Below are positions 6,530-64,000 of a DNA stretch of 64,000 nt, piece after piece. The notes under the pieces were generated by a model that made no database searches, was not told the DNA's origin, and saw only the letters and a list, made by a program, of their open reading frames with translations. Source of the DNA: Vulcanisaeta thermophila. Lineage in GTDB: Archaea > Thermoproteota > Thermoprotei > Thermoproteales > Thermocladiaceae. How positions within the stretch are numbered: position 1 is the stretch's first letter; every line of letters starts with the position of its first letter. The position numbers and the translations under genes are program-made. The stretch covers positions 599,177 through 663,176 of the forward strand of contig NZ_BCLI01000001.1 of the NCBI RefSeq assembly GCF_001748385.1, read 5' to 3'.

Positions 6530-6607
6530 CAGCCCAATGCACCAACACCAAGGGGTCAGGCAAATATATTAATTACTTTTGCAAACACTAACCCGAAGCC
6601 ACCAACC

Positions 6608-45775: not shown

Positions 45776-45851
45776 AGCCGGGTCGTCTAGCGGCCAAGGA
45801 TGGCGGGCTCTGGACCCGCAGACCCCGGTTCGAATCCGGGCCCGGCTACCA
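45776..45851 (+). tRNA. trnQ: tRNA-Gln (anticodon CUG)
   Basis: The acceptor stem is AGCCGGG/CCCGGCT, with A1-U72 and an encoded CCA. The anticodon stem-loop is GCGGG CTCTGGA CCCGC, giving anticodon CTG (reads CAG), and the T arm is CCCGG TTCGAAT CCGGG. No intron is present. The gene is immediately followed by a perfect hairpin (45865-45895) and then the TnpB-like element. Confidence 0.93.
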
Positions 45852-45864
45852 AACCCATCCTCAC

Positions 45865-45895
45865 CCCACAAAACACCCCACGTGGGGTTTGTGGG
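45865..45895 (+). terminator. Perfect hairpin after tRNA-Gln
   Basis: CCCACAAA and TTTGTGGG pair around an ACA bulge and the palindrome CCCCACGTGGGG (45876-45887). It may terminate the tRNA transcript or mark the edge of the mobile element. Similar CACGTGGGG palindromes occur at 5663-5672 and 47545-47556. Confidence 0.5.
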
Positions 45896-45937
45896 CGTGG
45901 GTTGTAGGCGTAAAACTTATTAGGTGGTTTATTGTCG

Positions 45938-46160
45938 TTATCTCAGCCCGGGGCTTTGGGTGGCTCCGGGCTGTTTCAGTGAGCCGTTTGTGGCGGGCTC
46001 GGACCCTTCCGCTATACGGCTCCCGCCGCATAGCGGACTGCCAATCATTTGACGCATCACGTATCCCATGTTCATCATTCTTTTCCCCAGCCCGGGGTGG
46101 GTGGGCCCCGGGCTGGGTGCCCGGAGCCCCTGCCCACCCCGGGCCGGGCCTATGTGTTTC
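45938..46160 (-). ncRNA. Possible omegaRNA region at the 3' end of the TnpB-like gene
   Basis: In TnpB elements the guide RNA overlaps the 3' end of tnpB. Here that part is very GC-rich and contains a 9-bp perfect hairpin AGCCCGGGG / CCCCGGGCT (46089-46097 and 46106-46114) with an 8-nt loop. The scaffold and guide junction cannot be seen directly. This is an inference from the family. Confidence 0.35.
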
Positions 46161-46948: not shown

Positions 46949-46953
46949 ACACT

Positions 46954-47122
46954 CCACCTGGGATAGACTACCCGGGCCCTTGAGCGCAGTGCAACCCAGG
47001 GTTTTGCTCTGGGCTGCACTGCACCGGGCCCTATTGAGAAGGAAGGATTTGGAGGTTGGTGGGCCCGGGCGTGGGTTTCCCCACGCCAAGGCCCAAGGGC
47101 CAGGGTAGTCTATCCCAGGTGG
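46954..47122. repeat. 20-bp perfect inverted repeat enclosing a three-way junction
   Basis: CCACCTGGGATAGACTACCC (46954-46973) is the exact reverse complement of 47103-47122; with one mismatch the repeat extends by about 5 more bases. Inside are GCAGTGCA/TGCACTGC with CCCAG/CTGGG (46986-47022), GGGCCC boxes, and GGCGTGGG/CCCCACGCC. It ends 6 bases upstream of the TnpB-like start. It could be a MITE-like insertion, the end of an IS, or a structured leader RNA. Confidence 0.7.
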
Positions 47123-48697: not shown

Positions 48698-50776
48698 TTA
48701 TTGGTTTTGTTTTATTGTTGGTTCTAATTCTATGTAGCCGAGTCTCTTTATGGGGCCTGTTATTATGAGTGCCTTTGTGGTTAGGGCTTGCATGTGGGGT
48801 GGGAGTGCCGTGCTCAACCACTTAATGTCCTCATCGGTGAGTTTGTACTTCTCGGCTACGCTTAGCACGTACGGGTCCGGCCCGCCTAAAATCACGGCCA
48901 GTGGTATGTTTCTGATTATGTCATCGTCGATGTCGGATAGTGTTTGTGTTATGAAGATTGTACCAAGTCCGAACTTCCTGAGGCCCCTAACGTAGAGTTG
49001 GCTCAGTGGGTTTCTCAGGACGTAGTAGGCCTCATCAACCACCAGCAACTGCTGTAGGTGTTCGCCGATGTTCCTGCTCATTGTGTAGGTATATGTGTGG
49101 TCTATGATGTTGAGCATCATGAATTCCATGATGTCTGGTACGGGCCTGGTGTTGGTGAAGAGTAGGGCTTTGTTGTTGAGTAGTTCTGGGGTGCCCACGA
49201 TCTTTGCATCGCCTAGGTAGCTCATGATTTTGTCCAGCACAAGCCCTGTTCGTGTATCCTCAACCTCTAGGCGAAGCTTCCTCATTGCTTCGTGGAAGTC
49301 GTGGTATGTGTCGTCTAGGTATAATGTCCTTAATGCTGGGATTAGGGAGTTTGGATCCACGCCGAACACTGTGGTGAATGTGTTGGCTATGCGGTCTATG
49401 CGTTCTATGTCGGTTACTCCGTCGAGCTCGAATATGTTTATGAAGGTCTTGGTTGCGTCGATGGGCTCGATACCGGGTATCCTTAGGTACTCACCGTGTG
49501 GGTCCAAAATGAGGACCTTGATTCCGCTCTTCATCAATCTGTACAGTATTGTTGAGACTGTCCAGGTTTTGCCCATACCCGTTGGGCCCACCACCAGTGC
49601 GTGCCCACTCGGTAGTGCGTCCAGGTCTATGGTTAAGTCCCTATTCTCCCTATCCCTGCCGAGCTTAACCACTGCCCTCGTGGAGGTGCTCACTAGCTTG
49701 CCCCCGTGGAATATGGGTATCACGGCTATGTCGAAGCTCAACTCGTTAATGCTGGGCTCAACCCACAGGTGTAACTGGGTTGTTGATGCCCTGAAGACCA
49801 TGTACGGGTTATTCAGCGGCTTGTCCAGTGCGATCATCACCTTCACAGGCTCCTCGGCCCTTTGTGTAATTCGATCAAGAACCACTCTCCACTGCTGGCT
49901 CCTCGCCAGGGACTTACCCCTCTCCTGCACAACGAACCTCTCGTACTCCCTAGCCACCCTAGCCACCACCTCGCCACGGAACTCCGGGTTGCTAGTTATG
50001 GCAATGGCGTAATTACTCACTAACGAGGCGTTGGACTCCGCAATCTGCTTGATGTCCTCCTCCTCGGGCATTGTGAAGTACATAACAGACCCAGCAAGCC
50101 TAAACCTAAGTGTGCTGAGCATGCCACCCCTCACAACGCTGTAATTACCCAGGGACTTTACGGTGAGTGCTGTAAAGGGTATTGTGAAAGCCAGTGAGTA
50201 TGGGCCCATGAGAAGGTAAGCAACCAAGGCCAGGACAGCCAGGGCAGCGGCATTCCTGGCCCTACTAAGGGGTTTGGGGAAGCCCATGAGTTTCCTCAGC
50301 TCGGGCCCGTCGAGTGGAGTTAGTATGAAGTACTGCCTAAGCACAGCCTCTATGGCGCTTAGCCTGGTGCGTACTGAATCCGCATCATTCCCCGAACCCC
50401 TCAGTGAGGCCCTCACGTACTTCTGTCCATTCACGCTCATGAATGTTACGTACTCGCCATGGCCTAGGCCCAGCCTACGTAGTAGTTCTGACCATAGGTT
50501 TGTGTACTGAGGCCCGGTGAGCCTGGCTAAGTCGTAAAGCGGTTCTGCTTTGTACACCACGTGGAATACGCCGTTCTTTGCGTCGTAGACGTAGTCCTCC
50601 ATAACCACGAGCCTAGGCGCCAAACCAGGATTCACCAGCGACAGGAAGCCCTCAATGAGCCAGTCCCTAACGTCCTTAATAATTAGTAATAGGGGTAGTA
50701 GCAGGGCCAGTGGGTGGTAGGCGATTCCAATGATTAGTAGTGTGGTTAGGAGTGTCCATTTGAGTGTGGGGTTCAC
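48698..50776 (-). CDS. Membrane-anchored VirB4/HerA ATPase (CedB/TedB-like)
   Basis: Two N-terminal transmembrane helices (about residues 7-33) and another pair near 175-200 are followed by an accessory domain. A HerA/VirB4-type motor comes next: Walker A GPTGMGKTW near 397, Walker B QLLVVDEAYY near 577, and a sensor region (TIFITQTLSDID). This layout matches CedB of Sulfolobales and TedB of Thermoproteales, ATPases that import DNA between cells. The 692-residue protein overlaps the giant gene by 4 bases (ATGA). CedA/TedA-like gene is at 61996; the small pilin (CedA1/TedC) was not found in the window. Confidence 0.8.
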   Translation of the reverse strand: MNPTLKWTLLTTLLIIGIAYHPLALLLPLLLIIKDVRDWLIEGFLSLVNPGLAPRLVVMEDYVYDAKNGVFHVVYKAEPLYDLARLTGPQYTNLWSELLRRLGLGHGEYVTFMSVNGQKYVRASLRGSGNDADSVRTRLSAIEAVLRQYFILTPLDGPELRKLMGFPKPLSRARNAAALAVLALVAYLLMGPYSLAFTIPFTALTVKSLGNYSVVRGGMLSTLRFRLAGSVMYFTMPEEEDIKQIAESNASLVSNYAIAITSNPEFRGEVVARVAREYERFVVQERGKSLARSQQWRVVLDRITQRAEEPVKVMIALDKPLNNPYMVFRASTTQLHLWVEPSINELSFDIAVIPIFHGGKLVSTSTRAVVKLGRDRENRDLTIDLDALPSGHALVVGPTGMGKTWTVSTILYRLMKSGIKVLILDPHGEYLRIPGIEPIDATKTFINIFELDGVTDIERIDRIANTFTTVFGVDPNSLIPALRTLYLDDTYHDFHEAMRKLRLEVEDTRTGLVLDKIMSYLGDAKIVGTPELLNNKALLFTNTRPVPDIMEFMMLNIIDHTYTYTMSRNIGEHLQQLLVVDEAYYVLRNPLSQLYVRGLRKFGLGTIFITQTLSDIDDDIIRNIPLAVILGGPDPYVLSVAEKYKLTDEDIKWLSTALPPHMQALTTKALIITGPIKRLGYIELEPTIKQNQ

Positions 50777-53700
50777 GGTTTTTTGTTTCGGTTGTTTTTA
50801 AGGGGTTCCTGCCCCGCCCCCTCCTTATCACCTCCTCCCTCGCCCCTGAGTTTTTCTAGGGTTTCTGTGGATATCCTCGTCATGTCCTCCCCCACCCTTT
50901 CCGCGTAATTGGTCTTTGCCTTTATGTACTCGTTATGCATTCTCCATGGTGGGTACTCGCTTGGTGCTATTTGTGATTTAATCAGTGCAATGCCCACGGC
51001 GTTTAATCCTAATAATTGCGTGAGTATTACTAGGCGTGAGTAGGGCTCCTCCCTGATTAGGTCGGGGTTTTTCGATAGTCTCTTTGAGAGAGCGTTTGTG
51101 AGTATCTCGGTTACTGAGTATATTAACTCCGCTGCCTCCCTTTCATTCTCCATCTTCTTTGGGTCAAACCTGTAGCCCGTGCGTTTCTCTATCTCATCAG
51201 CCTTAATACCGCCTAGGCTTGCCAATGCCTCGGCTATGTGCAGCATGAGTATGTCGTAGGGTAGGGCCCAGTCCCAATAACTGGGCCTCTCCTTACGCTC
51301 CTTAATGTAGTTCTCGTAGGCATTCACATCCCTCTCCCATAACTCATGAACTATGTTGAGTAGGTGTAGTAGGTTTTCCCTGGCCGTATTCTTTAGGAGT
51401 CCCAGGTGTGGTTCTAGGAATGAGTCCATGCCCTTAATCACCATGTTCTTTAAATCCTCGGGCTTTATCGACCAGACATTACCACCAAACCACATAACCA
51501 ACTCCCTAAGCCTGTTTATGTCGGGGTTTGGCGCGCTCCTTGCGTAGTCCATTACGGCTAGGTAGTACCGCTCCTCACCTTTCCTTAGGTACTTGCCCGC
51601 CCTCTTGAATATCTCCTCGGCTATTGGGTTATTCCTCATTAGGTAGCCTATTGCCTTCCCCAGCTCGGGAAGTAGCTCTGGGTGCTTCTTAATTGCGCTC
51701 CACTTAAGTGTTGCTGCGTACCTAGCCGCCCTCTCCAAGTCCTCCTCGCTCAATTCCCCAGGGGGTTTGTCCATGGCTTTCAATCCCTCGGTTAGCGGCG
51801 TCATGGAGAGTAGTACTGGTATGTAGTTCTCAAGCAGTACTGCGTGGTATGAGGGGCCTATGCTCAGGGCCTCGTTTAGTACTGCGTATGGTCCGTACAT
51901 GATTATCCTAGCCCTCCACCTGGGTGCGCTGTGGTTTATTACCAACTCCCTAATGACATCCACGATGCCACCCTCATTGGGTATGCCCAGTACCTTCGCC
52001 AGTTCATTGAATGGTTCGTCCTCATTGATTGCGTATAGCACCACGTCCTCTATGACCTTCCTGGACATGTCCATGGCCACCAGGTTAAGGGGTGCCTCGA
52101 GAACCCACTTGGGTAGTTCCTTGGAGAGTAACCCCATGAACTCCTCATTTAACCTCTTCATCAACCTATCCACTACGCCGTAGGCCTCTAGGGCCTTATT
52201 CACTGCGTACTGAATGGCCTCGTCTAGGTAACCCTCACGCTTAAATTTCTCGGTTAACTCATTGAGTACGGCCTTAACATCCTCCACATCAGCCGTGGGT
52301 GTGCGGATTACCGAGAGGATGCGGGATAGGGCCTCCCTGAGTAATTGGTTGTACCTGGCCTCCCTGGCAATGTTGTAAAGCTTACCCGCGTCGCGGTCCA
52401 GGTGCGCCATGATTATTGCCTTGAGGCCCGCTGCAGCGTTCACGTTTTTGGAGAGTTCCTCATCCATGACGCTCCTCAGTATTGCTGTGATGATGGACCT
52501 CAGCGCCTCATCCCTGGCCTGCCCCAGGACCTCGGTCTTGTACTCCATAATGCGCCTGGCGCGGTTAGCCTTGAAGTCGTTCTCTGCCATTATGGGTATT
52601 CTAACGGTCACCTCACTCACGAGGGCCCTAATCCTCTCCTCAATGGGCACCTTGGCAACCCTGGCGAGTATGGAATCCACCTCATCCACATCGCCCCTCA
52701 TAATCGCATTGTACCACCTCCTCCTGAGCTCCTCATCCCTCTGTATCATGTAGGCTCCCGTTAGGTAATGGGCTATGAGCCCCATGGGGTTGGCAACACC
52801 GGCAATCTTCAGGAGCCCAGCTAACTCCTCAAGGGCTTTAAGCACCGTCAAGCCCTCATTACTCTTCCTGAGTTGGTTGAGGGTTTCGCCAAAGAGGTTC
52901 ATTGACTCCTCCATTGCCTTCTTCAATGTTTCAGTTCCACTATTAATCACGCCCATTATCCTCACGAACTCCTCACTATACCTATTGATTAAACGCTGCA
53001 ATGCCCTCCTCTCCAGGTTCTTACTCTCGAAGTCACCCCTCAACACCCTAGCCTTCAACCTAATCCCCAGCTCATGGAGGTACCACTGCCTGAAGAGGTC
53101 GGGCTTTGACGTATCGAGCCTTGGGTAGCCCCTTATCCTCTCCCTCATCATCCTCAATGCGCGCTCCACAGTGGGTAGGAAGCCCCTACTCCAGACTGCG
53201 TTGTACGTGTTCACCGAAGCCTCCGTTACGTTCCATGTGGTGCGGAATGTGTTAAATATACTCACCAACTCATTGGCCCTTGATATGAACGGTGACATGG
53301 AGGTTTCGAAGGAGCCCTCAATAACCCCAGCCAACGCCTTGGCGGGGTTCACCAACGCCAATGCCGTGTCTATGGGAGCGCCCATCCTACGAGCCCTACC
53401 CAGGGCCCACCCTGGCAACCCACTCATTGAATCCCTGGCGGGCACCCTCATCGCACCCCTAGGAGTTTGCACCAGGTTATTCAAGGTTTTTGTGGAACCC
53501 ACGGTCACAGCCCTGACATCAAGCCCCTCAAGACCTCTAATCCTGCCCCGCCACCTACTCATGAACATTAACCTATAATCATTACTATATATGAAACGCC
53601 CACCCTGCATTGCATCCCTATAGTAATTCCACCTGGCCATGTGGTGGAGGGCCCCGGAGAACCTTAGGAGTAGGTTAGCCCTCCTGGTATTACCACTAAC

Positions 53701-56139
53701 CAAGGCCTTACTAGCCCTCCTCCTTAACTCCCCAGATGCCATTTCCAAACCCGCCTCCCACGGATCAACAACAAGCCTAACCCACTTATTGTTCAACCTC
53801 CTAGACACCTCGCCAACCAGGGTGTTGGCCCTCATGCCCACGTATTGAATGGACTCCACAGCCCTCAATACGTGTATACCCAACCTAAGCGATGATGAGG
53901 CAAGGGCCCTCCTAACCCTACCCAACCTAGTGCTTGGTTCGGGCGCATACGTCAGTTGGCTCAACCTCCTCGCTAGGCCCTCCCTGGCCTTCCTAGCCCC
54001 ACTGCCCACTGTCCTTAATGATTTCCTAACCACTCTCCCAACGACCCTGGTAAGCCCCGTCATCCTTAGGTACAGCACCAGGGATAAGTCGTAAATCACA
54101 TCCTGCAGTAGGCCCCAGACAGGGTTTAGGAGTGCTGGTAGGCCCACTGTGTATGCCCCCGCGTCTAGTAAGCCGATTACTGACACCGTCCATGCCACCC
54201 ACTTAAAGACGTACCAACCCACGGAAGCCAATAGTGAGTTGGTCCCGCTCATGCTTAGTACGGTATTCCATGCCGTGGATAACCACGTGAGGTTTCCATA
54301 AATTAGTGAATTCACAATCCAGGAGGTTAGGGGCGTTATTACCAGTGGTGCCTCCCCATACCACGGATTTGCGGCATTACCCACCAATGTTAATGAGCCA
54401 TTCACCCAGTCAATCACCCAGTAATCCTCAACGGGGCTGCAAATCACCACCTCATGGGGCGCCGGTGAACAGTAGCTCCAGTACTCGGATGAATTACCTG
54501 GATAGGACACGTAGGCAAACCACATAAACTGCCCATAGCCCAGGGGCTTGGGGTTAGGAAGTGATGCGGTGATGGATGGACTTCCCCAGTGCAGCTTCTC
54601 TGCCATGAATTCCGTCTCATTGCGCACCTTCCCAATGAATTGCCTGATTAGGCTTAGTTGTGGCCCTATGTCCACCTGCCTATACAGTGTTGAGTTCGTG
54701 ACCCACTGCCCGTAGGTTATGTTGTACCCAGGAATGAGGTGAGTGGTTTGTGGGCTTGGTATTAGCTTCAAACCCCAGAACCAAAGCCTCGCCTCCCTAC
54801 TTTCTGACTGGCACAGCGTTATGGTTTGTGTGGTTGTTTCGTTTGTTAACTCGTTGATCCTGGTTACGTTGTAGACCGTACACTCAATATTCAACTGTAA
54901 ACCGTAGTTTATGTACACGGTATTATTGGTCTCATTAACCGAGAAGTAACTGGGCGCCTCAAGCCACTTCCAAGCACCCGAATAACCACTCACATTCGTA
55001 CTAACCCGTATTAACTCAAACGGCGCCCCACTTATGCTCTCCACAACCATGTACGTCTCATTAGGGTATGTAATCGAGCGGTAAAGCCAGTGGGCGCTGG
55101 AGCATGGTTCTGACACGGGACTCCCAATCAATGATTGGTTCTTCACACTCACCTCATAAATGATTAATTGACACGACTCACTTACCGAGTGTGTTACATC
55201 AAGCCAGAGTAGTGTGACGTTATTTATGAATATGGGGCCTAGAACTGGGGCTACACCAATGGCCCCCGTACCGTATGCTAGGAACCAGGTTTGATTACCC
55301 AGTATGGCGTACCAAGTGCCATTCAAATTCTCAACCTTGTTATAGACATAGCCCGAGACCAGGACAGGCACTGGGCTTTGAAATGCCACGAACCCCGCTA
55401 GGGTTTGGTTATGGGGTAGGTTATTCCCTACGGTCATGGTTATGTTGGTCAGTGTCTCATTCCAGTAATGAAGTAATTCCTCATTCTGGGCAGCCCCTAT
55501 CGTTGCCGCAGCCAGGCCTGTGAAGAACATTATGGCCATCGCCATCAGTGCAAGGGCCCAACCCAGTGACCTGGTACCCCTAACTATAAGTAGTGGTATT
55601 GCCACCGCTATTATGACTGGTACCCAGTGGGTTGTGAACCAAGCCGTCCATGCTATTGTGTGAAGTACCGCAACCATTAACTGGGCAAAGTGGTTAATCG
55701 CCGAGAGTACATCGGCAATGGGATCCAACACCCATCCTAACCCCATGGGCGTTGCATAGTAAGGTATTGGTTGGGGGATTATGAAGTTCCTCAATACCCA
55801 ACTGGCTATGGTTGGTATGGGCATTGCGAGTAGGGCGATTATGTTAAGTACTGTCATTGTAACCGCCACTAGGAACCATATTGATGCTGTGACGTAGGCA
55901 ATACCGTACCAGTCTTCCTCAGCGGTAACAGCCCACTTGTATACTCCCTCAAAGCCCATTAATGGCGCCCCAATCAAGTCCGGTATCACGTATGCTGTTA
56001 ATGCGTAGATAATGAGTATAGAGGCCCCTGCGTAGAACAACCTCACGTACTCCCTACTACCCCTCCTAAGTAGTGAGTACACTAGGATTATAACTGCCTC
56101 TATGGGTACCACATACTGGAGTAACCAGGAATCCATCAC
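50773..56139 (-). CDS. Giant polytopic membrane protein with large cytoplasmic helical domain (1,788 aa)
   Basis: The N-terminal 220 residues contain about five transmembrane helices. An extracellular region of about 400 residues with many N-x-S/T sites follows (for example WNETLTNITMTV), then two more helices (VGWYVFKWVAWTVSVIGLLDAG, and VLYLRMTG). The last 1,080 residues are soluble, charged and mostly alpha-helical (numerous Glu/Lys/Arg heptads). The protein sits between, and is translationally coupled to, the CedB-like ATPase. The topology recalls VirB6 or TraG-like channel proteins of conjugation systems with very long cytoplasmic extensions, but no specific family is recognised. The start is ATG 56139 or 56136. 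Confidence 0.7.
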   Translation of the reverse strand: MMDSWLLQYVVPIEAVIILVYSLLRRGSREYVRLFYAGASILIIYALTAYVIPDLIGAPLMGFEGVYKWAVTAEEDWYGIAYVTASIWFLVAVTMTVLNIIALLAMPIPTIASWVLRNFIIPQPIPYYATPMGLGWVLDPIADVLSAINHFAQLMVAVLHTIAWTAWFTTHWVPVIIAVAIPLLIVRGTRSLGWALALMAMAIMFFTGLAAATIGAAQNEELLHYWNETLTNITMTVGNNLPHNQTLAGFVAFQSPVPVLVSGYVYNKVENLNGTWYAILGNQTWFLAYGTGAIGVAPVLGPIFINNVTLLWLDVTHSVSESCQLIIYEVSVKNQSLIGSPVSEPCSSAHWLYRSITYPNETYMVVESISGAPFELIRVSTNVSGYSGAWKWLEAPSYFSVNETNNTVYINYGLQLNIECTVYNVTRINELTNETTTQTITLCQSESREARLWFWGLKLIPSPQTTHLIPGYNITYGQWVTNSTLYRQVDIGPQLSLIRQFIGKVRNETEFMAEKLHWGSPSITASLPNPKPLGYGQFMWFAYVSYPGNSSEYWSYCSPAPHEVVICSPVEDYWVIDWVNGSLTLVGNAANPWYGEAPLVITPLTSWIVNSLIYGNLTWLSTAWNTVLSMSGTNSLLASVGWYVFKWVAWTVSVIGLLDAGAYTVGLPALLNPVWGLLQDVIYDLSLVLYLRMTGLTRVVGRVVRKSLRTVGSGARKAREGLARRLSQLTYAPEPSTRLGRVRRALASSSLRLGIHVLRAVESIQYVGMRANTLVGEVSRRLNNKWVRLVVDPWEAGLEMASGELRRRASKALVSGNTRRANLLLRFSGALHHMARWNYYRDAMQGGRFIYSNDYRLMFMSRWRGRIRGLEGLDVRAVTVGSTKTLNNLVQTPRGAMRVPARDSMSGLPGWALGRARRMGAPIDTALALVNPAKALAGVIEGSFETSMSPFISRANELVSIFNTFRTTWNVTEASVNTYNAVWSRGFLPTVERALRMMRERIRGYPRLDTSKPDLFRQWYLHELGIRLKARVLRGDFESKNLERRALQRLINRYSEEFVRIMGVINSGTETLKKAMEESMNLFGETLNQLRKSNEGLTVLKALEELAGLLKIAGVANPMGLIAHYLTGAYMIQRDEELRRRWYNAIMRGDVDEVDSILARVAKVPIEERIRALVSEVTVRIPIMAENDFKANRARRIMEYKTEVLGQARDEALRSIITAILRSVMDEELSKNVNAAAGLKAIIMAHLDRDAGKLYNIAREARYNQLLREALSRILSVIRTPTADVEDVKAVLNELTEKFKREGYLDEAIQYAVNKALEAYGVVDRLMKRLNEEFMGLLSKELPKWVLEAPLNLVAMDMSRKVIEDVVLYAINEDEPFNELAKVLGIPNEGGIVDVIRELVINHSAPRWRARIIMYGPYAVLNEALSIGPSYHAVLLENYIPVLLSMTPLTEGLKAMDKPPGELSEEDLERAARYAATLKWSAIKKHPELLPELGKAIGYLMRNNPIAEEIFKRAGKYLRKGEERYYLAVMDYARSAPNPDINRLRELVMWFGGNVWSIKPEDLKNMVIKGMDSFLEPHLGLLKNTARENLLHLLNIVHELWERDVNAYENYIKERKERPSYWDWALPYDILMLHIAEALASLGGIKADEIEKRTGYRFDPKKMENEREAAELIYSVTEILTNALSKRLSKNPDLIREEPYSRLVILTQLLGLNAVGIALIKSQIAPSEYPPWRMHNEYIKAKTNYAERVGEDMTRISTETLEKLRGEGGGDKEGAGQEPLKNNRNKKP

Positions 56140-56172: not shown

Positions 56173-56688
56173 TCACCTGAGAACCACCTTAACCTTAGGG
56201 GCGTTTATGCCAGTTGCAATCCTTGGGTCGTGATTATACCCATTTATACCTAGGATCTTGTGTAGTAATTTCACGGGCTTAACACCCATGAACCTAGCCA
56301 ACCCTTTGACCCTGGGCATTAATGCGTCCATGTAAGCGATGTTTCTATGGGCATCGGTTTTAGAGTCAACCTTGATGGGTGTGGTCCAGGGGTTTGCGTT
56401 GATGTAATTAACATGGTTACGTAGGTACCTCCTAACATAGTACTCAAACAGGGGTGAGTACATTGATGGTATTGCCGTAATCACCCTAGCATTACCCCTA
56501 AGGACTGCCTCATTAAAGTGCTTAAGTGTGACATCACTCACATTCAAAACTACCGCGTTAATCATGATTGCATCTCCATCAATGCGCATGGTCACGCCTA
56601 CCTCAGCCGCACTAACCACCGCATCAAGCCCCTCCATCGCAAGCGCCCCTGGATCAATAAGTAGTGTGAGGACCCTCCTCATACCCAT
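56173..56688 (-). CDS. Hypothetical protein, 171 aa
   Basis: The product has a mixed alpha/beta pattern (TLLIDPGALAMEGLDAVVSAAEVGVTMRIDGDAIMINAVVLNV), which might be a small Rossmann-like or ferredoxin-like domain, and a basic C-terminus ending in KVKVVLR. I chose ATG 56688 because the open frame from 56724 overlaps the ATPase gene more. It overlaps that gene by 35 bases and is probably co-translated. No family recognised. Confidence 0.55.
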   Translation of the reverse strand: MGMRRVLTLLIDPGALAMEGLDAVVSAAEVGVTMRIDGDAIMINAVVLNVSDVTLKHFNEAVLRGNARVITAIPSMYSPLFEYYVRRYLRNHVNYINANPWTTPIKVDSKTDAHRNIAYMDALMPRVKGLARFMGVKPVKLLHKILGINGYNHDPRIATGINAPKVKVVLR

Positions 56689-57919
56689 CACCAATGCATT
56701 GCCAAACCTCCCGTAACTTCTCATTCAAATTCACATTATCAGCCCTAAACCCAAACTCATAAATGATACTGGGATCCACACCCAGAGCCTTACAGCAGGC
56801 CTTAAGGGTTATCGCCGTGATCTTAGGCTCCTCATTAACATTCACCCGTATCGGCAACTCAACAAATGTCCCCCCAAATGCGTCAACGAGCTCCGGCCTT
56901 GTTAAGTGCGCATGCATTAATGCCGTGAATGATTCACGCCATGGTATATCAGGTGGGGCCACAACACCAGCACCCCCTTGGTAATAGGCCTCCCTACCGA
57001 AACGCCTTAACCATGGTTTCTCATGAAACAGCATTTCCCTGGGCTCACTATAGGCTATGGGGAATTCCACAAAGAGCTTATTACTACTTATTAATTCATT
57101 AGGTATATCGAGGGGTGACTGGGTAATTAGTACGAAGTACCTACGCCTATTCCTACCAGTCCTTATTGCAAATGTTAATGTGGACTCCCCAGTCCTGAAA
57201 TAAAGGTGTGCCTCGTCGATTATGAGTATGATGTTTGTGGTGCCTGCCGAATCGAGGGAGGCTATGAATGATAGCACGTAGAACCACCTCTGTAGTGGTG
57301 AGGTTAGGAAGTGTAGGTCTATACCCACGGAGAGGCCCCTTAACCCACCACTGAGAAGCTTCGCAATTAATGGGTGCGTCTCATTAAATATCCAATGCCT
57401 AAAGTACTCAAGCCTCCTTAGAAGACCCCTTGTTGAATTAACCTCATCCTCAGTGTTTATAATCCCCACCTTAATGGCGTCCCTCAATACCTTAATCAAG
57501 CCCTCAATATTCTTAGGATAAGCCCCTGAATCAATACCCTTCACGGGCTCCTCAAACCATGAATAAGCCCTCATTAACAACTCATCCATGGCAGGCGTCA
57601 TTATGTACTGAAGCCGTGGAAACCTAATACTCAGGACCTCCCTGATAATGTCAGTGAGCTCCAGCCCGCTTAGGTAGTCCAGGGGGTTGAATGGGTATGG
57701 TGCGTAGTAATCCGTGTAGCCCTCGTAATTACCAACCACATCGAAAACAATTACTGAGTAATCACTTGGAATATTAACCAGGGCATTCCTCATGAGACTT
57801 GATTTACCGGTCCCGATGGCACCAAACACTATCATATGGGTTTCATTCAGAATCATTAATTGAAACAGGTGATGTGATGGATCCTCCCTCAAATTTGCAA
57901 CCCATTTCAAATCCTCCAT
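56654..57919 (-). CDS. HerA/TraD-like ATPase, second copy (421 aa)
   Basis: Walker A GAIGTGKSS (residues 33-41 from the ATG used) and Walker B IILIIDEAHLYF near 235, followed by RTGRNRRRYFVLITQSPLDI, are typical of HerA/VirB4/TraG-type motors. No membrane helix is evident, so this could be a soluble coupling ATPase that feeds DNA to the membrane motor. The ATG at 57919 is used; a GTG is two codons upstream. Divergent from the plus-strand gene at 57966. Confidence 0.78.
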   Translation of the reverse strand: MEDLKWVANLREDPSHHLFQLMILNETHMIVFGAIGTGKSSLMRNALVNIPSDYSVIVFDVVGNYEGYTDYYAPYPFNPLDYLSGLELTDIIREVLSIRFPRLQYIMTPAMDELLMRAYSWFEEPVKGIDSGAYPKNIEGLIKVLRDAIKVGIINTEDEVNSTRGLLRRLEYFRHWIFNETHPLIAKLLSGGLRGLSVGIDLHFLTSPLQRWFYVLSFIASLDSAGTTNIILIIDEAHLYFRTGESTLTFAIRTGRNRRRYFVLITQSPLDIPNELISSNKLFVEFPIAYSEPREMLFHEKPWLRRFGREAYYQGGAGVVAPPDIPWRESFTALMHAHLTRPELVDAFGGTFVELPIRVNVNEEPKITAITLKACCKALGVDPSIIYEFGFRADNVNLNEKLREVWQCIGDGYEEGPHTTY

Positions 57920-57965
57920 CACCACTTAGGTCTGGGCGTTTAAAAAGCCGCAACTCACTAAGTTG

Positions 57966-58874
57966 ATGATTGGCCTCGTTATTGGAAGACAGGACTTACT
58001 AATCATTAAGAGGGGCTTCACGTTCAAGAGCATTGACGGCATTAATAAGCTGGGCTTTATCCCAGACGTTGAACTAAGCCCATTATCAGCAGCCATAATG
58101 CTAAGAATAGCCGAATTACTCAATGAGAGAATCACACCACCACTAAACAATGTTAGACTCAGTGAGTACACCGAGGATTGTAACATAGGTAGTTTCATTT
58201 GCATGGGGCTTAAGATGCTCAGGTACGGTGATGCCGACCTAGACAAACTCAGGGACTCCATTAACTCAATACCCCTACCCACCATTGAGCCCGTAAGCAC
58301 AATGGTCGGCATCATACTATCCATAGAGACTGGCTTACCCATCGAAGTATACTCAGACATATGGCCAATGCTCGTCGACGTACTAGCCGAGGTTAAGGGC
58401 CTTGGCCGTGACGTTGTGGTGCATAGTAATGTGTTCGATATTAACAGGGTCTATGTGTTTGATTACGTGATTAGGAGGTTCATAAGGATCCCACGCATTG
58501 ATGATGTTTACAGGCATGAGGAGGGTGGTGATGACACCGTTGAATTAATCGATAAGAGCTTTAGAAGGGACACCAGGGCGTTCAGTAAATACTCAACAGC
58601 AGCACCTGCCAGGTTCATAGAACCACCCAAGGGTTTAGTTCACTTACTGAAGGTCCTAATAGGTGAACTTAATGGTGTTACCACATTGAAATCCCTAACC
58701 GATATATTGAGCAGGGACGGCTTTGGCTTAGGGGACATCATGAGCGCCGTTGATAATGGCTATGTTACCTACAACCCCATGGACCTCACGGTCAGGGTAA
58801 CCCCGGCCGGCTTGGCCATGGCTAGGCACCTAGGCATTATAACCAGCACGGGTGATGCAAATGCTCAGGGTTAA
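57966..58874 (+). CDS. Hypothetical protein, 302 aa, C-terminal winged helix
   Basis: The N-terminal 200 residues form an alpha/beta domain that I do not recognise. The last 70 (LTDILSRDGFGLGDIMSAVDNGYVTYNPMDLTVRVTPAGLAMARHL) look like a winged helix-turn-helix. ATG 57966 follows a TTG at 57963. It is divergent from the ATPase gene by under 50 bases, so the two could share a control region. The next gene overlaps its end by about 20 bases. A regulator or relaxosome role is possible but not shown. Confidence 0.6.
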   Translation: MIGLVIGRQDLLIIKRGFTFKSIDGINKLGFIPDVELSPLSAAIMLRIAELLNERITPPLNNVRLSEYTEDCNIGSFICMGLKMLRYGDADLDKLRDSINSIPLPTIEPVSTMVGIILSIETGLPIEVYSDIWPMLVDVLAEVKGLGRDVVVHSNVFDINRVYVFDYVIRRFIRIPRIDDVYRHEEGGDDTVELIDKSFRRDTRAFSKYSTAAPARFIEPPKGLVHLLKVLIGELNGVTTLKSLTDILSRDGFGLGDIMSAVDNGYVTYNPMDLTVRVTPAGLAMARHLGIITSTGDANAQG

Positions 58875-59415
58875 GGTAGGGCTTATTAGAAGGAGGGAGT
58901 TGTTGATTTACTCGTTAAGGCCAAGCCCAACATTAAACCTCAGGTTAATGGCTGGGGATCTACTATTCATAGACCCCTTAAGTAGGAGCATGGTTATTGC
59001 CAGGGAAACCCCATTGGTAATACCCAGTACCTACCTTCTGGATAGGGTTGATTACATGATTAAAGCCAAACCCCTAAAGGGCCACTGCTTCCTCAACGCA
59101 TTCCTACTCAATGACAGTACCTACGAGGCCTTGGTTCAACACGCATTTGTTAATTACTACGTAATAATCACCAGGGCATTAAAGGCACCAAACCTGAATA
59201 GGCTAATTAAGAGCTTGGCTAGGGAGAATGTGTCCGTGGCAATATCAATGGAGAGGTTCAGGAACGCACTAACTGCATGCCCATTACTAATAACCTTTGC
59301 ACAACCAAACTCCAAGGCAAAACCAACACCATTTTGGAAACTACTAAAATATGCGTGTTATGCGCCATGCACAATGATTATCCCATACGTTAACCAATTC
59401 GGAATAATAATTTGA
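58855..59415 (+). CDS. Hypothetical protein, 186 aa
   Basis: A mixed alpha/beta protein with strands such as YSLRPSPTLNLRLMAGDLLFID and four cysteines spread through the C-terminal half (HCFLN, TACPLL, KYACYAPC). The reading frame starts with GTG 58852, ATG 58855 or ATG 58861, overlapping the previous gene. No known domain. It precedes a 100-base promoter region for the TFB-like gene. Confidence 0.55.
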   Translation: MQMLRVKVGLIRRRELLIYSLRPSPTLNLRLMAGDLLFIDPLSRSMVIARETPLVIPSTYLLDRVDYMIKAKPLKGHCFLNAFLLNDSTYEALVQHAFVNYYVIITRALKAPNLNRLIKSLARENVSVAISMERFRNALTACPLLITFAQPNSKAKPTPFWKLLKYACYAPCTMIIPYVNQFGIII

Positions 59416-59495
59416 GTAGATTACCCCGCACTGGGCAGAAGACTATATATATTACTTTCAGTCTAGTGTACTGGATTTTCCAACTATTTTAACTA

Positions 59496-59505
59496 TATAA
59501 TACCT
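59496..59505 (+). promoter_or_regulatory. Promoter of the TFB-like gene
   Basis: CTATATAATA is a strong TATA box about 26 bases upstream of ATG 59524. An imperfect inverted repeat (CAGTCTAGTGTACTGG, 59459-59474) lies just upstream and could be an operator. Confidence 0.5.
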
Positions 59506-59520
59506 ATTTAACGAGTATTG

Positions 59521-60294
59521 ATGATGTCGGCTACAAACAATGGTGCGAGAAGGAGACTAGATGCCCTTAAGAGAATAAGCAATGCATTAATGCACAGACG
59601 TTTTGAGTTCAATGAGGATGAGCATGATAAGTACACATGCCCTTACTGTGGTATGCCAACCTTAAGCTTAAACGATCACGGTGAGTGGGTTTGTAAACAC
59701 TGCGGCACAGTGGTCAGGGAGGCCATGGATTACGAAGTAGACACCAAAGCCGGTGTTATCAATAGGCTTGGTGGGTATAGAGCCCTTAATAGGACTGTCA
59801 ATAATGTGGTTGGTGGTGTTATGGAGATAGGTGTTAGGAATCCCCCGGATAAGTATGAGGCCGTCCTCAATATACTGCGGGAATACCTATCATCCGCTGC
59901 TGACATCTACATACTCAAAAACTTGGCGAAGGCAGCAATTAAGTGCGATGCCAATGCATCATTATTAGCTAAGGCGTTGGCCTGCATCATAAATGGTAGG
60001 TTTGGTAAGAGGTCATCATGCATAGTTGTGCATAGGGTTAATGATGGCGCCATCGAGGAGGAGTTAAGGATCAGGGGCCTGGACACCTTTAGGGAACTCA
60101 ATGAGTGGGCCAGGGCCATTGGTGAGGAGCTTGGAGTGAGGCTACTTAGTATTATTGAATTAGCCATATATATCGTAACACGCAGTGAGGTGGCGATTAT
60201 GGAGTATAGGAGATCGAGGGGCAATAATATCAGGCAGAACATAATGAGGGCTAGATACATCATGAAAAAGTATGTTAACGCGTCGATCGTATGA
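59521..60294 (+). CDS. TFB-like transcription factor with N-terminal zinc ribbon
   Basis: The zinc ribbon is CPYCGMPTLSLNDHGEWVCKHCG (two CxxC pairs, about residues 40-62), the TFIIB/TFB signature, followed by REAMDYE in the B-reader/linker position. The C-terminal 190 residues look like divergent cyclin-like repeats. At 257 aa it is shorter than canonical TFB (about 300), so the second cyclin repeat may be degenerate. ATG 59521 or 59524. Encoded inside the DNA-transfer block, it may be an alternative initiation factor for these genes. Confidence 0.65.
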   Translation: MMSATNNGARRRLDALKRISNALMHRRFEFNEDEHDKYTCPYCGMPTLSLNDHGEWVCKHCGTVVREAMDYEVDTKAGVINRLGGYRALNRTVNNVVGGVMEIGVRNPPDKYEAVLNILREYLSSAADIYILKNLAKAAIKCDANASLLAKALACIINGRFGKRSSCIVVHRVNDGAIEEELRIRGLDTFRELNEWARAIGEELGVRLLSIIELAIYIVTRSEVAIMEYRRSRGNNIRQNIMRARYIMKKYVNASIV

Positions 60295-60330
60295 TTGCAC
60301 GTACGGTGTCGAGGGCATGTTCGTGAGGTC

Positions 60331-60357
60331 GTGGAACGGTCTTCGTAAGCGTTCCAC
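60331..60357. repeat. Perfect 8-bp inverted repeat, operator or terminator
   Basis: GTGGAACG (60331-60338) pairs with CGTTCCAC (60350-60357) around GTCTTCGTAAG, with CTT/AAG extending the stem. It lies between the TFB-like gene and the next gene. As a DNA palindrome it could be an operator; as RNA a terminator. Confidence 0.4.
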
Positions 60358-60503
60358 GTAATTTAGAGAATTTGTGTAAAATCAACGTGAATTAACCCGT
60401 AGGTTCAAAATAATGTTCATGATAACGATTCAATTCCAAATAGACCATACGCACGGCGCCGGCCCTTTTTAAATCCTTTTAAACCCTTATAAGGAATAAA
60501 TTG

Positions 60504-61973
60504 ATGTCTAATCTTCTGCTTAAGATACTCGAACCCATAAGGAGTAAGGTTGAGGTTAAGGAGATTTTAAATTACTACGTACTTCCAAGTGACCATCCAT
60601 GTCCATGCAATATAGAGGACGATACTATTAATAGAATGGCCCTAAACATCCAGGACAATAAGCAAGTGCATAGCTTAGTCCTAGTTAAAGCACCAATAAC
60701 TTTAGTGAAGGTGCTTAACGAAAACATTAAGCCCTACGTGAAGGGTATTGTTATAGGTCCTCCCTGCCTCTACGAGGCGTTGAAAAGTATTGACCCAAAC
60801 ACTAAGGTTAGGGTCGATATTTACGAATTTCATGGGCAAGAGGATTTACCCATTATTAGGGCCTTAATGTACGAGGCATGTATTGAGGAAGGACATGACA
60901 TAAGAAATCAGAGGCTGGACTTTATTAAGAATAGAATTGCAGCAATCCTAAGGATATCGAGTTGCGAGGATGCCATGGATATACTGAGGATGGGTCCTCG
61001 TGCAAATGTTGTGATTAACGAATTAACCTCTTTATTGGCACTTAAGAAAGAAACCATTGAGAGATATGTAAAGACAGTAATAGATGTATACAATGATGAG
61101 TTAATTAAGTACATACCAAAGGATTGCGCTAATGATTTCGATAAGCATTACCAAAGCCAAAGATTAATAATAGATGAAAAGAGTACCGAAGTTGATAATG
61201 CTGCAGCTATCTCAATACAGAAGGTTAGTATTCGTAGACTCATTACTGCTAAGAAGATAGTGGAGTATTTATCCATAGATAATAAGGATGAGGGGGTTAA
61301 GAATCTCATTTCGAAATTAAGTTACAGTGAACTTGAGCGTATAAATGCTAGGATTAGCGATGATAATGTTAGGAGGGTTGTTGAGGAATTCGCTAAAAAC
61401 CCAACCGATGAGGCCCTGTCTAGGCTTAGGGACATTATTGAGCAGGGGTCTAGTTCCACAGTACCCATTGGTGCAAAGCCGTTGGGCACATTTAAAATTG
61501 AGTGCTATAATGCGGATGATTGTGAGGTAATTAGGAGGTTTGTTGAGTGTTATAGAGCCACCTCCGCCACTGCTATTCAGTGTATGGAGAGTGCCGTTAA
61601 ATCTGATGACTTCTATAGCGATGCTTTTCTGACAGAGTTCATGGAAAGACTTAGGAAGTTACCTAGGGATAGGCTTGACCTAGCCCTTAACTCCTCAATA
61701 AAGCTTGTAAGCATAATAGATATGCTTGATGATACGAGGTATGCCCAGTACATGCTCAACACTCTCAGGTTACTTGCTAATGTAAATGATGCCGAGGGCT
61801 TGGGTGATTTAATACGTGTAATAAACTCGATGGTGCCCTTACTCATTGATAAGGATATTAAAGAGCTCATAATAAGGTTGGTCTCGGAATATGCGGAGCG
61901 TGATGATCTGCCCAGTGGTGTTAAGGAGTGGTTGGGTGAATTAATTAAATTCCTCGATTTAAATCCCCCTTAA
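60504..61973 (+). CDS. Hypothetical protein with possible ParB-like N-terminal domain, 489 aa
   Basis: Residues 1-200 show the pattern of ParB/Srx-like proteins: IQDNKQVHSLVLVKAP, then a nucleotide-pocket-like VRVDIYEFHGQED, then a DNA-binding-like helical region (CEDAMDILRMGPRANVVINELTSLLALKKETIERYV). The remaining 280 residues are helical and rich in Asp/Glu/Lys. The ParB motif GxRR is not evident, so the assignment is weak. A MinD-like ATPase is in this genome at 5735 but far away. Promoter: TTTTAAACCC about 26 bases upstream. Confidence 0.5.
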   Translation: MSNLLLKILEPIRSKVEVKEILNYYVLPSDHPCPCNIEDDTINRMALNIQDNKQVHSLVLVKAPITLVKVLNENIKPYVKGIVIGPPCLYEALKSIDPNTKVRVDIYEFHGQEDLPIIRALMYEACIEEGHDIRNQRLDFIKNRIAAILRISSCEDAMDILRMGPRANVVINELTSLLALKKETIERYVKTVIDVYNDELIKYIPKDCANDFDKHYQSQRLIIDEKSTEVDNAAAISIQKVSIRRLITAKKIVEYLSIDNKDEGVKNLISKLSYSELERINARISDDNVRRVVEEFAKNPTDEALSRLRDIIEQGSSSTVPIGAKPLGTFKIECYNADDCEVIRRFVECYRATSATAIQCMESAVKSDDFYSDAFLTEFMERLRKLPRDRLDLALNSSIKLVSIIDMLDDTRYAQYMLNTLRLLANVNDAEGLGDLIRVINSMVPLLIDKDIKELIIRLVSEYAERDDLPSGVKEWLGELIKFLDLNPP

Positions 61974-61995: not shown

Positions 61996-62859
61996 ATGAG
62001 TGAGTCCCTAGTAAGCCTGGGGCTTTATGGTACATTGGCTGGGATTGGCACCCTCTATGGCATTGTTAAGTACGTAAGTGGCGTAACGCCTGAGGATAGG
62101 CGTGAGGGGCTTGACATACTAATGGATACTGCAGTGGGTACATTGATGTACGTGGTTATGTGGGTAGTTATCATGAAGAGCAGCTTATTACCGAACCTCA
62201 CCTACAGCATTGGCTCAGCCTTTAACCTAACCAACTACGCACCACTAAACCAAACCCAGTACCTAAGCAGTGGTGACACCTTACTTAGTGGCACAGCAAT
62301 TGCGAGTAAGGAGTACTTCAATGTGGTGACCCAGGTTTATGGTAATTTCTGGGGTATCATACTTGCCCTGAACATGGTCCCCATCACATCACCACTGGCT
62401 TGGTACCTGCAAAATGCGACGTGGTATTGGCAAACTACGATTCAGTGGACCATCATAAATATAGGATTCATATACGCACTAAGCATCATAGCGGGCTTAG
62501 CCTGGGCATTAATCCCTGCGGCCTCGGGACTCCTAATACTGAGGCAGACCAGGATTGTGGGCACCGTAATACTAAGCCTCATCATAGTCTCGGTAATCAC
62601 GGCACCATTACTGGCAAGCCTAGCTGGACAGGCATTAACCACATCGGGTATTGCCAGCATCTCTAGCGTGAACCCAGCACAAGCCGCCGAGAACCCAGGC
62701 ATATTCGTGAATTCAATACTCAACGGGGCAATGCAAAGCGGACTTAAACTCCAGAGCTTCGACGTCACCGTTGACGTTGTCCTAGCGTTTGCGGTTGCCG
62801 TGGCCATGGGCATTAATAGAGCCCTTAGTGAGGTGGAGCACGTAATATTCCCATACTGA
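61996..62859 (+). CDS. VirB6/CedA-like polytopic membrane protein (287 aa)
   Basis: About seven hydrophobic segments are visible, beginning SLVSLGLYGTLAGIGTLYGIV and including TTIQWTIINIGFIYALSIIAGLAWALIPAASGLLIL. An extracellular loop with N-x-T sites (NLTNYAPLNQTQYL) lies between helices 2 and 3. The size and topology match CedA of Sulfolobales and the corresponding channel subunit (VirB6-like) of Thermoproteales. It is 23 bases downstream of the previous gene. The C-terminus ends in EVEHVIFPY. Family assignment is by topology and context. Confidence 0.6.
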   Translation: MSESLVSLGLYGTLAGIGTLYGIVKYVSGVTPEDRREGLDILMDTAVGTLMYVVMWVVIMKSSLLPNLTYSIGSAFNLTNYAPLNQTQYLSSGDTLLSGTAIASKEYFNVVTQVYGNFWGIILALNMVPITSPLAWYLQNATWYWQTTIQWTIINIGFIYALSIIAGLAWALIPAASGLLILRQTRIVGTVILSLIIVSVITAPLLASLAGQALTTSGIASISSVNPAQAAENPGIFVNSILNGAMQSGLKLQSFDVTVDVVLAFAVAVAMGINRALSEVEHVIFPY

Positions 62860-62950: not shown

Positions 62951-63562
62951 ATGGAAAACATAAACCCCAAAATACTACGGCTCGCCCTTGACTCATTGAG
63001 GAGAGATTTCCCAAATAAGTCCCGTTCATGGATCAGGAGAGCCCTTAGGCGTTTGCCCAGGGTGAGGCCCCACCCCAGGCTGCCTAATGTCTGGATTGTG
63101 GAGGGCGACCCGTCCCTGGGCGATAGGTACCCCACGTACGTGGTTAGGCTTAGGCCTGATGGGAGGTATGCATGTAGTTGTTTCGAGACTCCCTGGGGAA
63201 TGAGGAGGAAGAGCGAGATTTGTACTCACATAGCCGCAGTAATGCTTTGGCGTAGGTACCACGCACTCCTCAACGAGGTTGTTTACGCGGACACAATCAC
63301 CATAAAATGCAGTGATTACAATCTACTGATTGATAAGTCAGTTAGGGACAAGGTGAGAATGGAGAAGAGGGTCAGGGTCCTCAACAACGACCTAATCAAC
63401 CCACTTTACGAAATCACCTACGTCATCTGGTCCAAAGAACCAATGAGAGTCAGGGCCAAGGTTGTGTGCAACGAAGACATAGAGGAAATAAAGATGGATT
63501 TAAAGCCCACACCCAGGTACATGATTGAAGTCGTTAGTGAAGCCCGTCATTCTCAATGGTGA
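62951..63562 (+). CDS. SWIM zinc-finger protein, 203 aa
   Basis: The SWIM motif C-x-C-xn-C-x-H is seen in YACSCFETPWGMRRKSEICTHI (residues 74-95). SWIM proteins partner with Rad51/RadA paralogues (Sws1/Shu-type complexes), and here the convergent neighbour is a RadA-family gene. The N-terminal 60 residues are basic (LRRLPRVRPHPRLP), suggesting DNA binding. ATG 62951. The 3' end overlaps the radA-like gene by 29 bases in the opposite direction. Confidence 0.85.
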   Translation: MENINPKILRLALDSLRRDFPNKSRSWIRRALRRLPRVRPHPRLPNVWIVEGDPSLGDRYPTYVVRLRPDGRYACSCFETPWGMRRKSEICTHIAAVMLWRRYHALLNEVVYADTITIKCSDYNLLIDKSVRDKVRMEKRVRVLNNDLINPLYEITYVIWSKEPMRVRAKVVCNEDIEEIKMDLKPTPRYMIEVVSEARHSQW

Positions 63563-64000
63563 ACTTAGCCTCGGCGCCACTGGGCACCCCAGGCACGTCT
63601 AGTGCCTTGATTACGCCCTCGTTTTTTGATTTCGGTTTCTGCATGAGCCACCTCTGATTTACCGTGTGAGCTAGGACGTTGCCTCCAACGGGCATTTTAA
63701 GCTCTATGTACCCCGTGGGCATGGTCATTACTTGATTTGTGTAAATCACCAACACCCCCTCCCTTATGGTGAGCCTCCTGAGCCAGTCTAGGACGTAGTG
63801 GAGCCTTTGCTGCCTCTCCGCAAGCCTCTCACGACCCCTGAACTGGGCCCTGTAGAGGGCTGTGACTGAGTCAACAATGATTACCCTGGCGGAGCCACCA
63901 GTCACCAGTCCCGAGACCCTCACCCTGATGAACTCCTCGAGCTCATCAACAGTGGCAGGGTTGTAGGTGAGTAGGTGCTTGTCAAGGAACTCATCGTAAT
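63534..64000 (-). CDS. radA: RadA-family recombinase, C-terminal half (partial)
   Basis: The frame is open from the right edge (YDEFLDKH near 63998) to the stop at 63534-63536. It contains the ATPase landmarks VIIVDSVTALYRAQFRGRERLAERQQ, the YTNQVM strand, and the MPVGGNVLAH loop region near L2. It ends in ALDVPGVPSGAEAKFTIENDGL, which diverges from canonical RadA (DSPHLPE). This could be the main RadA or a RadA paralogue. The N-terminus with Walker A is outside the window. Confidence 0.85.
   Translation of the reverse strand, partial: YDEFLDKHLLTYNPATVDELEEFIRVRVSGLVTGGSARVIIVDSVTALYRAQFRGRERLAERQQRLHYVLDWLRRLTIREGVLVIYTNQVMTMPTGYIELKMPVGGNVLAHTVNQRWLMQKPKSKNEGVIKALDVPGVPSGAEAKFTIENDGLH

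What the first reader, a model, noticed from the sequence alone, without database searches (positions are those of the whole stretch)
59521..60294. TFB-like factor embedded in the transfer block
A CxxC...CxxC zinc ribbon in TFB position within a non-core gene block suggests a dedicated initiation factor. The protein is short and its cyclin-like part is divergent.
Basis: partly seen in the sequence, partly recalled or inferred. Interest (0 to 1): 0.5.

Follow-up and report, generated by a model that had tools for sequence, protein, structure and literature searches.

The report
TFB-like gene in archaeal DNA-exchange locus
A heat-loving archaeon carries, inside the gene cluster it probably uses to swap DNA between cells, a gene that looks like a remodelled copy of the general factor that starts transcription, perhaps a private switch for that cluster, although its function is untested.

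Summary
The ORF (59521-60294, 257 aa) and its CxxC...CxxC ribbon are real. Against models from its own order the ribbon scores as TFB type (39.6 bits) rather than ribosomal eL43 (7.2), though general libraries are split. The block is a Ted DNA-exchange locus of a Vulcanisaeta. The C-terminal part matches no family and its own model is poor (pLDDT 41). Related loci hold a gene of the same size beside the same partner gene (p490); its model has TFIIB-family proteins as weak top matches in two libraries and at the head of the realigned list (Z 8.3). The window's C-terminal part ranks first of 257 proteins for similarity to that family. All 10 relatives aligned lack the ribbon cysteines. The pair was found only in this genus, beside Ted or pilus genes, usually with an inverted repeat between the two (8 of 10 tandem loci). 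Most likely it is a TFB-derived regulator private to the locus, analogous to Sulfolobales TFB3; function untested. TFIIB homologues in archaeal pilus loci are published (PMC4858521), so this is a new variant of a known kind.

The parts
59521..60294 (+). TFB-like protein, 257 aa (end includes the stop codon)
   Evidence: open frame; TFB-type ribbon
59638..59703 (+). zinc ribbon, C40-x2-C43-x14-C58-x2-C61
59764..60273 (+). C-terminal all-helical part (residues 82-251), proposed divergent cyclin region
   Evidence: helices in a low-confidence model; first of 257 in similarity to the TFIIB-like family
59486..59502 (+). A+T-rich TATA-like stretch about 20-35 bases before the ATG, possible promoter for a leaderless message
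   Evidence: read from the sequence; not tested
60295..60500 (+). gap between the TFB-like gene and p490, with an inverted repeat at 60330-60358
60257..60499 (.). dispersed repeat: five clear copies in this genome counting this one, overlapping the last ~12 codons of the ORF
60501..61973 (+). p490, partner gene of the TFB-like gene; HPCPC motif and four further invariant cysteines
61996..62859 (+). TedA-like membrane protein (287 aa)
   Evidence: relatives 37-43% identical; weak T4SS_pilin match; name after PMC9905601
48698..50776 (-). TedB-like (VirB4/HerA-type) ATPase
   Evidence: 57% identical to the G018 protein, which has DUF87
50773..56139 (-). 1788-aa protein of the Ted locus
   Evidence: homologues in related loci
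56654..57925 (-). HerA-like ATPase, 423 aa
   Evidence: DUF87, TrwB_AAD_bind
57963..59415 (+). two further conserved genes of the locus (303 aa and 187 aa, overlapping)
62951..63998 (.). 203-aa protein (+, 62951-63562; SWIM-like motif recalled, no Pfam match) and RadA-like gene (-, from 63534, runs past the window end)

Best explanation
The gene encodes a TFB-derived (TFIIB-superfamily) factor that belongs to the Ted DNA-exchange locus of a Vulcanisaeta. It most likely works as TFB3 does for the Ced and Ups genes of Sulfolobales: made under some signal, it joins RNA polymerase through its zinc ribbon, while its cyclin-like part and/or its neighbour p490 steers it to promoters of the Ted and pilus genes. 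Shown: the ORF, the TFB-type ribbon, the place in a conserved transfer locus, and a recurrent gene pair with p490. Predicted only: the cyclin folds, seen in models of relatives. Inferred: promoter control, the signal and p490's role. In 10 of 10 relatives aligned the ribbon cysteines are gone, so in those lineages RNA polymerase would have to be contacted in another way, perhaps through p490.
For: TFB ribbon 39.6 bits against eL43 7.2 in same-order models. Family with the same size and partner gene at the same place in related Ted loci and in pilus loci. TFIIB-family proteins as first structure matches of a relative's model. Window C-terminus first of 257 against that family. Module found only in this genus, the same eight genomes for both genes counting the window's. 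dN below dS in six of six pairs of copies. In Sulfolobales, TFB3 co-regulates Ced, Ups and HerA genes (passages). TFIIB homologues recur in archaeal pilus loci (PMC4858521).
Against: No whole-length sequence match to TFB, and no profile match of the window protein to its proposed family (E 18, rank 89). The window protein's own model is poor and retrieves no cyclin. Structure matches of the relative have E 0.08 or worse, Z at most 8.3, and unrelated folds follow close behind in the Foldseek lists. Family-against-TFB profile comparison is not significant: a pilin control scored better. The relatives lack the zinc site, so a ribbon-based mechanism is not conserved. No expression or binding data.
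Confidence: 0.5

Rival explanations
1. The ribbon is of another kind (eL43-like or a generic ribbon) and the protein is an unrelated helical zinc protein; sharing place and size with the relatives is coincidence or displacement.
For: Ribosomal_L37ae passes its Pfam cut-off; the best PDB matches are eL43; NCBIfam eL43 33.9 bits against TFIIB 19.3, both far below their cut-offs; the 14-residue spacing also fits eL43.
Against: Same-order models favour TFB by 32 bits; the GGA(W/Y) motif after the eL43 ribbon is missing; the genome has its own eL43 (106.9 bits); the C-terminus ranks first of 257 against the TFIIB-like family.
Confidence: 0.13
2. It is a competitor rather than an initiation factor: it occupies the polymerase dock or the TBP-promoter site and damps host transcription, or keeps the locus silent.
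For: TFB3 competes with TFB1 for polymerase in vitro (PMC2246294, passages); no reader/linker region is recognisable after the ribbon.
Against: Later work has TFB3 as an activator of ced and ups genes (passages); no data here separate the two.
Confidence: 0.15
3. A TFIIB-like fold reused for something other than transcription, for example a cytoplasmic partner of p490 in pilus or DNA-transfer work.
For: Constant pairing with p490 (10 of 13 loci in tandem) and loss of the ribbon cysteines in 10 of 10 relatives aligned; PMC4858521 raises a changed function for a pilus-like operon that holds a TFIIB homologue (passage).
Against: The window copy keeps the full ribbon; transcription is the only role I know for TFB relatives in archaea (recalled).
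Confidence: 0.15

Closest known systems
Archaeal TFB / TFIIB
   Same: Zinc ribbon of TFB type; relatives predicted to have TFIIB-like tandem cyclin folds
   Different: 257 aa against 342 aa for the genome's TFB; no recognisable reader/linker; C-terminus undetectable by sequence; relatives have no cysteines in the ribbon region
TFB3 of Sulfolobales (PMC2246294, PMC6934391, passages)
   Same: Variant TFB tied to DNA-exchange genes; ribbon kept in the window copy
   Different: TFB3 lacks the B-finger and the BRE-binding helix-turn-helix and regulates in trans; here the gene lies in the locus, and the relatives keep the cyclin-like part and lose the ribbon. TFB3's sequence was not compared here
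arCOG01981 and arCOG05559 TFIIB homologues in archaeal T4P loci (PMC4858521)
   Same: TFIIB homologue encoded in a pilus-type locus, predicted regulator
   Different: arCOG05559 has a ribbon and one cyclin domain, is specific to Pyrobaculum/Thermoproteus and lies by RPB8; in this genome a different gene (C4, 276 aa) sits by what looks like RPB8 (by inspection)
Ted system of Thermoproteales (PMC9905601)
   Same: The surrounding locus: VirB4-like, CedA-like, pilin, HerA and ParA genes
   Different: The passages read mention no TFB-like or p490 gene in it

Membership tests
TFB/TFIIB | N-terminal zinc ribbon of TFIIB type with four cysteines | tested here: met
   39.6 bits, hhalign 98%; Pfam 26.8 bits, 2 bits under the cut-off; eL43 also matches
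TFB/TFIIB | two cyclin folds | tested here: inconclusive
   window model too poor; relatives' model TFIIB-like; no Pfam cyclin
TFB/TFIIB | B-reader/B-linker (PEWR region) after the ribbon | tested here: not met
   alignment to TFB ends at residue 69; so filed as TFB-like, not as TFB
TFB/TFIIB | binds TBP-promoter complex and RNA polymerase | not testable with these tools
   needs biochemistry
TFB3 | truncated after the ribbon, no BRE-binding helix-turn-helix | tested here: inconclusive
   the protein continues for about 190 residues after the ribbon; their fold is unproven
TFB3 | induced by DNA damage and activates ced/ups-type genes | not testable with these tools
   no expression data
arCOG05559 (ribbon, one cyclin domain, by RPB8 and a pilus-type ATPase) | neighbourhood of RPB8 and T2SSE-type ATPase | tested here: not met
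   neighbours are Ted genes; another gene of this genome (C4, 276 aa) lies by a gene resembling the one read as RPB8 (by inspection)
eL43 (L37Ae) | whole eL43 length and GGA(W/Y) motif after the ribbon | tested here: not met
   motif absent; 7.2 bits to same-order eL43; NCBIfam 33.9 of 95.8 bits; real eL43 elsewhere in the genome
Ted system locus | TedA, TedB, TedC together with HerA and ParA genes | tested here: inconclusive
   all five kinds present, the TedC- and ParA-like genes just right of the window; names rest on homology to other Vulcanisaeta loci, weak Pfam matches and the description in PMC9905601, not on comparison with the Pyrobaculum proteins

The most novel reading that the evidence does not exclude
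A genus-restricted, two-part initiation factor for DNA exchange: a TFB-derived protein that keeps the cyclin half and, in most lineages, has discarded the zinc ribbon, working with a constant partner (p490, with invariant cysteines) that supplies the lost polymerase contact. The inverted repeat between the two genes would be its autoregulatory site. The window copy, with an intact ribbon, would be the intermediate that shows how the split arose.
Probability: 0.12. Interest if true: 0.75.

Novelty: new variant of a known kind. Interest (0 to 1): 0.5.

Why it matters
How Thermoproteales switch on DNA exchange is, to my knowledge, unknown; in Sulfolobales a truncated TFB takes part. A TFB-like gene inside the Ted locus gives a concrete candidate, suggests that control of DNA exchange by modified TFBs may have arisen more than once, and shows that degenerate TFB relatives can hide below sequence detection.

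Tried and rejected
Whole-length relatives of the window protein by sequence: in the order (45 genomes) the matches other than itself were confined, but for one weak longer one (G043, residues 26-139, stop inside), to the ribbon region; none in viral contigs, plasmids or phages. Residues 71-257 alone in 398 Thermoproteota genomes gave, besides the gene itself, four matches of E 5.5e-4 to 0.0098, two of them with stops inside; not pursued. Family and p287 scans of viral contigs found nothing.

eL43 ribbon: considered seriously because Pfam, PDB and NCBIfam searches favour or tie it; set aside on same-order models. Caveat: the 16 TFB rows were picked from loci that the window protein had hit, which helps TFB somewhat; the 30 eL43 rows are the 30 loci of a family search.

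The structure of the window protein alone is too poor to use; its matches contain no cyclin, which says nothing either way. Profile comparison of the 10-member family with TFB puts ribbon on ribbon and first repeat on first repeat (P 0.019), but a pilin control scored better (P 0.0087), so it is not counted. The TFB cyclin-core model ranks the G018 copy third of 2228 ORFs after the two true TFBs, but at E 0.43; partial copies rank 11, 18, 19 and 32, other full copies 80 and lower, the window copy 147.

Dispersed repeat as a regulon: the two internal copies (C4, C1) lie beside TnpB-like genes and the other two at contig ends, with no common downstream gene; rejected as a regulon.

Only the first six of ten family members were used in the global-alignment test. 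In the phylum search, 11 of 398 genomes matched; four of these (E 1.9e-4 to 0.0093) were dropped as weak. Copies at contig ends (L060, L066) were left out of the count of tandem pairs. One search stopped with an error after writing its models; one search read the results.

Full report
Observation. The ORF at 59521-60294 (+) encodes 257 aa with CxxC at residues 40 and 58. Pfam's TFIIB ribbon matches residues 38-67 (E 3.8e-6, 26.8 bits, cut-off 29); the eL43 ribbon matches as well (26.7 bits, cut-off 21.9). In the PDB and NCBIfam eL43 scores best. To decide, I built ribbon models from the same order: 16 TFBs give 39.6 bits (hhalign 98%), 30 eL43 proteins 7.2 bits (77%) (the TFB rows came from loci that the window protein had hit, a bias towards TFB). 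The genome has a normal eL43 (106.9 bits), a canonical TFB on C8 (342 aa) and two further genes on C4, one with TFIIB repeats (322-aa frame) and one with a ribbon (276 aa). The alignment to TFB stops at residue 69, before the PEWR-type reader motif.

Genome and locus. The window is C1:599177-663176 of a 2.02 Mb genome. Parts of the block around the gene recur in G015, G017, G018, G020 and G023: a VirB4-type ATPase, the 1788-aa protein, a HerA-like ATPase, p303, p187, the 287-aa membrane protein, a 203-aa protein and RadA. This fits the Ted system described for Thermoproteales including Vulcanisaeta (PMC9905601; passages read). A TedC-like pilin and a ParA-like gene lie just right of the window (L072:5736-6161 and 6190-6993).

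A family at the same place. In related Ted loci the place next to p490 or RadA is taken by a 257-258 aa gene (G018 L051:15470-16243, G015 L058:9859-10635, G020 L054:2350-3123, G017 L065:2575-3351), with broken or cut copies elsewhere. These four reach no Pfam cut-off. Their N-terminus reads like the second half of a TFB ribbon without cysteines (VNDDGFPVDALSGLVLRDYVIEGTE). A wider search (398 genomes) found a second set in G015, G017, G019, G020, G021 and G023, again beside p490 and near a type IV pilus operon with pilin-, TadC-, T2SSE- and ParA-like genes (T2SSE and ParA-type domains were confirmed on the G018 homologues). None of the 10 full-length members aligned has a cysteine in its first 60 residues or a CxxC anywhere.

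Distribution. p490 is found in 8 of 81 genomes of the class, all of this genus; a ninth row type, a 28-residue fragment, lies elsewhere in the window's own genome. Strong matches of the TFB-like family (best E 2.1e-39 or lower) are in 7 of 398 genomes, the same eight minus the window's, which carries the ribbon-bearing version; four more genomes match only at E 1.9e-4 to 0.0093. TedA-like genes are in 17 of 81 genomes at E 1e-5; G019, G021 and G023 carry the pair without a TedA match there (G021 and G023 are incomplete), so the pair follows the pilus operon as much as Ted. Of 13 loci where both genes can be placed, 10 have them in tandem on one strand, 157-281 bp apart; the exceptions are G015 and G017-C8 in the Ted locus (RadA between) and G020-C16 (divergent). 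Six of six pairs of copies compared have dN below dS (ratios about 0.08-0.57; two partial copies among them).

Fold. AlphaFold2 on a relative (L097, four rows) gives pLDDT 62.6: residues 1-87 are under 50, ten-residue means are 57-90 from residue 91 on; a short hairpin at 13-23 and helices 66-78, 85-106, 113-126, 131-142, 147-164, 166-180, 189-205, 212-228, 230-240 and 244-256. Foldseek against the PDB puts chain M of two Pol II initiation complexes (TFIIB, chain name recalled and in line) at ranks 1 and 2, E 0.40 and 0.42, followed from E 1.1 by unrelated helical proteins and some cyclin H. VIA-align puts TFIIB of T. brucei first (3h4c, Z 8.3, 160 residues, rmsd 7.5) and yeast TFIIB second (Z 7.4, 142 residues, rmsd 5.1); I read all 50 rows shown as cyclin-box proteins, some names recalled. 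The tool warns that Z under 8, or under about 13 for helical bundles, may mean only a common arrangement. Against viral models the top three are Brf1/TFIIB, TFIIB and an archaeal virus TFB (E 0.08-0.29), with unnamed and unrelated proteins after them. Single values are weak; the agreement of the lists is what I rely on. The window protein alone gives pLDDT 41 and uninformative matches, apart from ribbons: TFIIB 1pft at rank 3 and many eL43.

Link of the window protein to the family. By profile it is not found (E 18, rank 89). Smith-Waterman of residues 70-257 reaches p 0.012 and 0.029 for 2 of 10 members, along the main diagonal, and 0.10-0.44 for the other eight. In a global-alignment test against 256 control proteins it ranks first (mean z 2.61; controls mean 0.51, sd 0.60, max 2.28, six of ten members used). 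With place, length and partner in common I take it as a divergent member that has kept the ribbon; probable, not proven.

The gap. The TFB-like/p490 gap holds an inverted repeat scoring 9 or more in 8 of 10 tandem loci, against 19 of 480 random 190-bp windows, coding included; G019 and G023 fall short although they share the motif of their relatives. Arms differ between lineages, and each was found once, in the gap, in the loci searched. In the window genome the gap is a dispersed repeat: five clear copies counting this one and a short sixth match, none in the other 11 of 12 genus genomes. The hairpin has four pairs kept through double changes, but the overall covariation term is slightly unfavourable (+0.48). 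The repeat overlaps about the last 12 codons of the ORF, so the protein's end may have been reshaped by it.

Mechanism. In Sulfolobales, TFB3 keeps the ribbon but lacks the B-finger and the BRE-binding helix-turn-helix and competes with TFB1 for polymerase (PMC2246294, passages); TFB3 is reported to co-regulate Ced, Ups and HerA genes (passages of PMC9905601, and PMC6934391). A locus-encoded TFB-like protein is a natural Thermoproteales counterpart. The relatives' pattern is opposite to TFB3 (cyclin part kept, ribbon lost), and p490 has an invariant H-P-C-x-C and four further invariant cysteines in 7 of 7 sequences aligned, so a two-part factor is conceivable.

What is known. Makarova, Koonin and Albers (PMC4858521; abstract, section 16 whole, passages elsewhere) already list TFIIB homologues as predicted regulators in archaeal T4P loci, and a single-cyclin variant with RPB8 in Pyrobaculum/Thermoproteus. 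In this genome the counterpart of that variant is perhaps the 276-aa gene on C4 (by inspection). My searches (open-access library held here only) listed no paper that describes the Vulcanisaeta pair, judging by titles, abstracts and the passages read; the supplements of PMC4858521 could not be read. Verdict: a real, moderately interesting new variant of a known kind.

Noticed in passing
window 60257-60499; C4:171889-172130, C1:316381-316626, C10:88062-88237, C4:11-155: Dispersed ~240-bp repeat with a hairpin whose stem changes on both sides between copies; two copies at contig ends; the C4 copy also holds the first ~30 codons of p490. No Rfam match at gathering scores in the window.
   Followed up: partly
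window 60330-60358 and the equivalent gaps in related loci: Inverted repeat between the TFB-like gene and p490 in 8 of 10 tandem loci, with different arms in different lineages.
   Followed up: partly
window 63534-63998, L072:4710-5684: A RadA-like recombinase gene is a constant part of the Vulcanisaeta Ted loci seen here; the passages of PMC9905601 that were read name rad50, not RadA.
   Followed up: no
L004 (own genome C4:15.8 kb) and L010 (G032): Ribbon-bearing TFB-like gene beside what looks like an RPB8-type subunit gene in both genomes; probably the TFIIB/RPB8 operon of PMC4858521.
   Followed up: no
window 45776-47089: tRNA-Gln (45776-45851) directly beside a TnpB-like gene on the minus strand (45938-47089), at the left edge of the Ted block; a possible insertion hot spot.
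   Followed up: no
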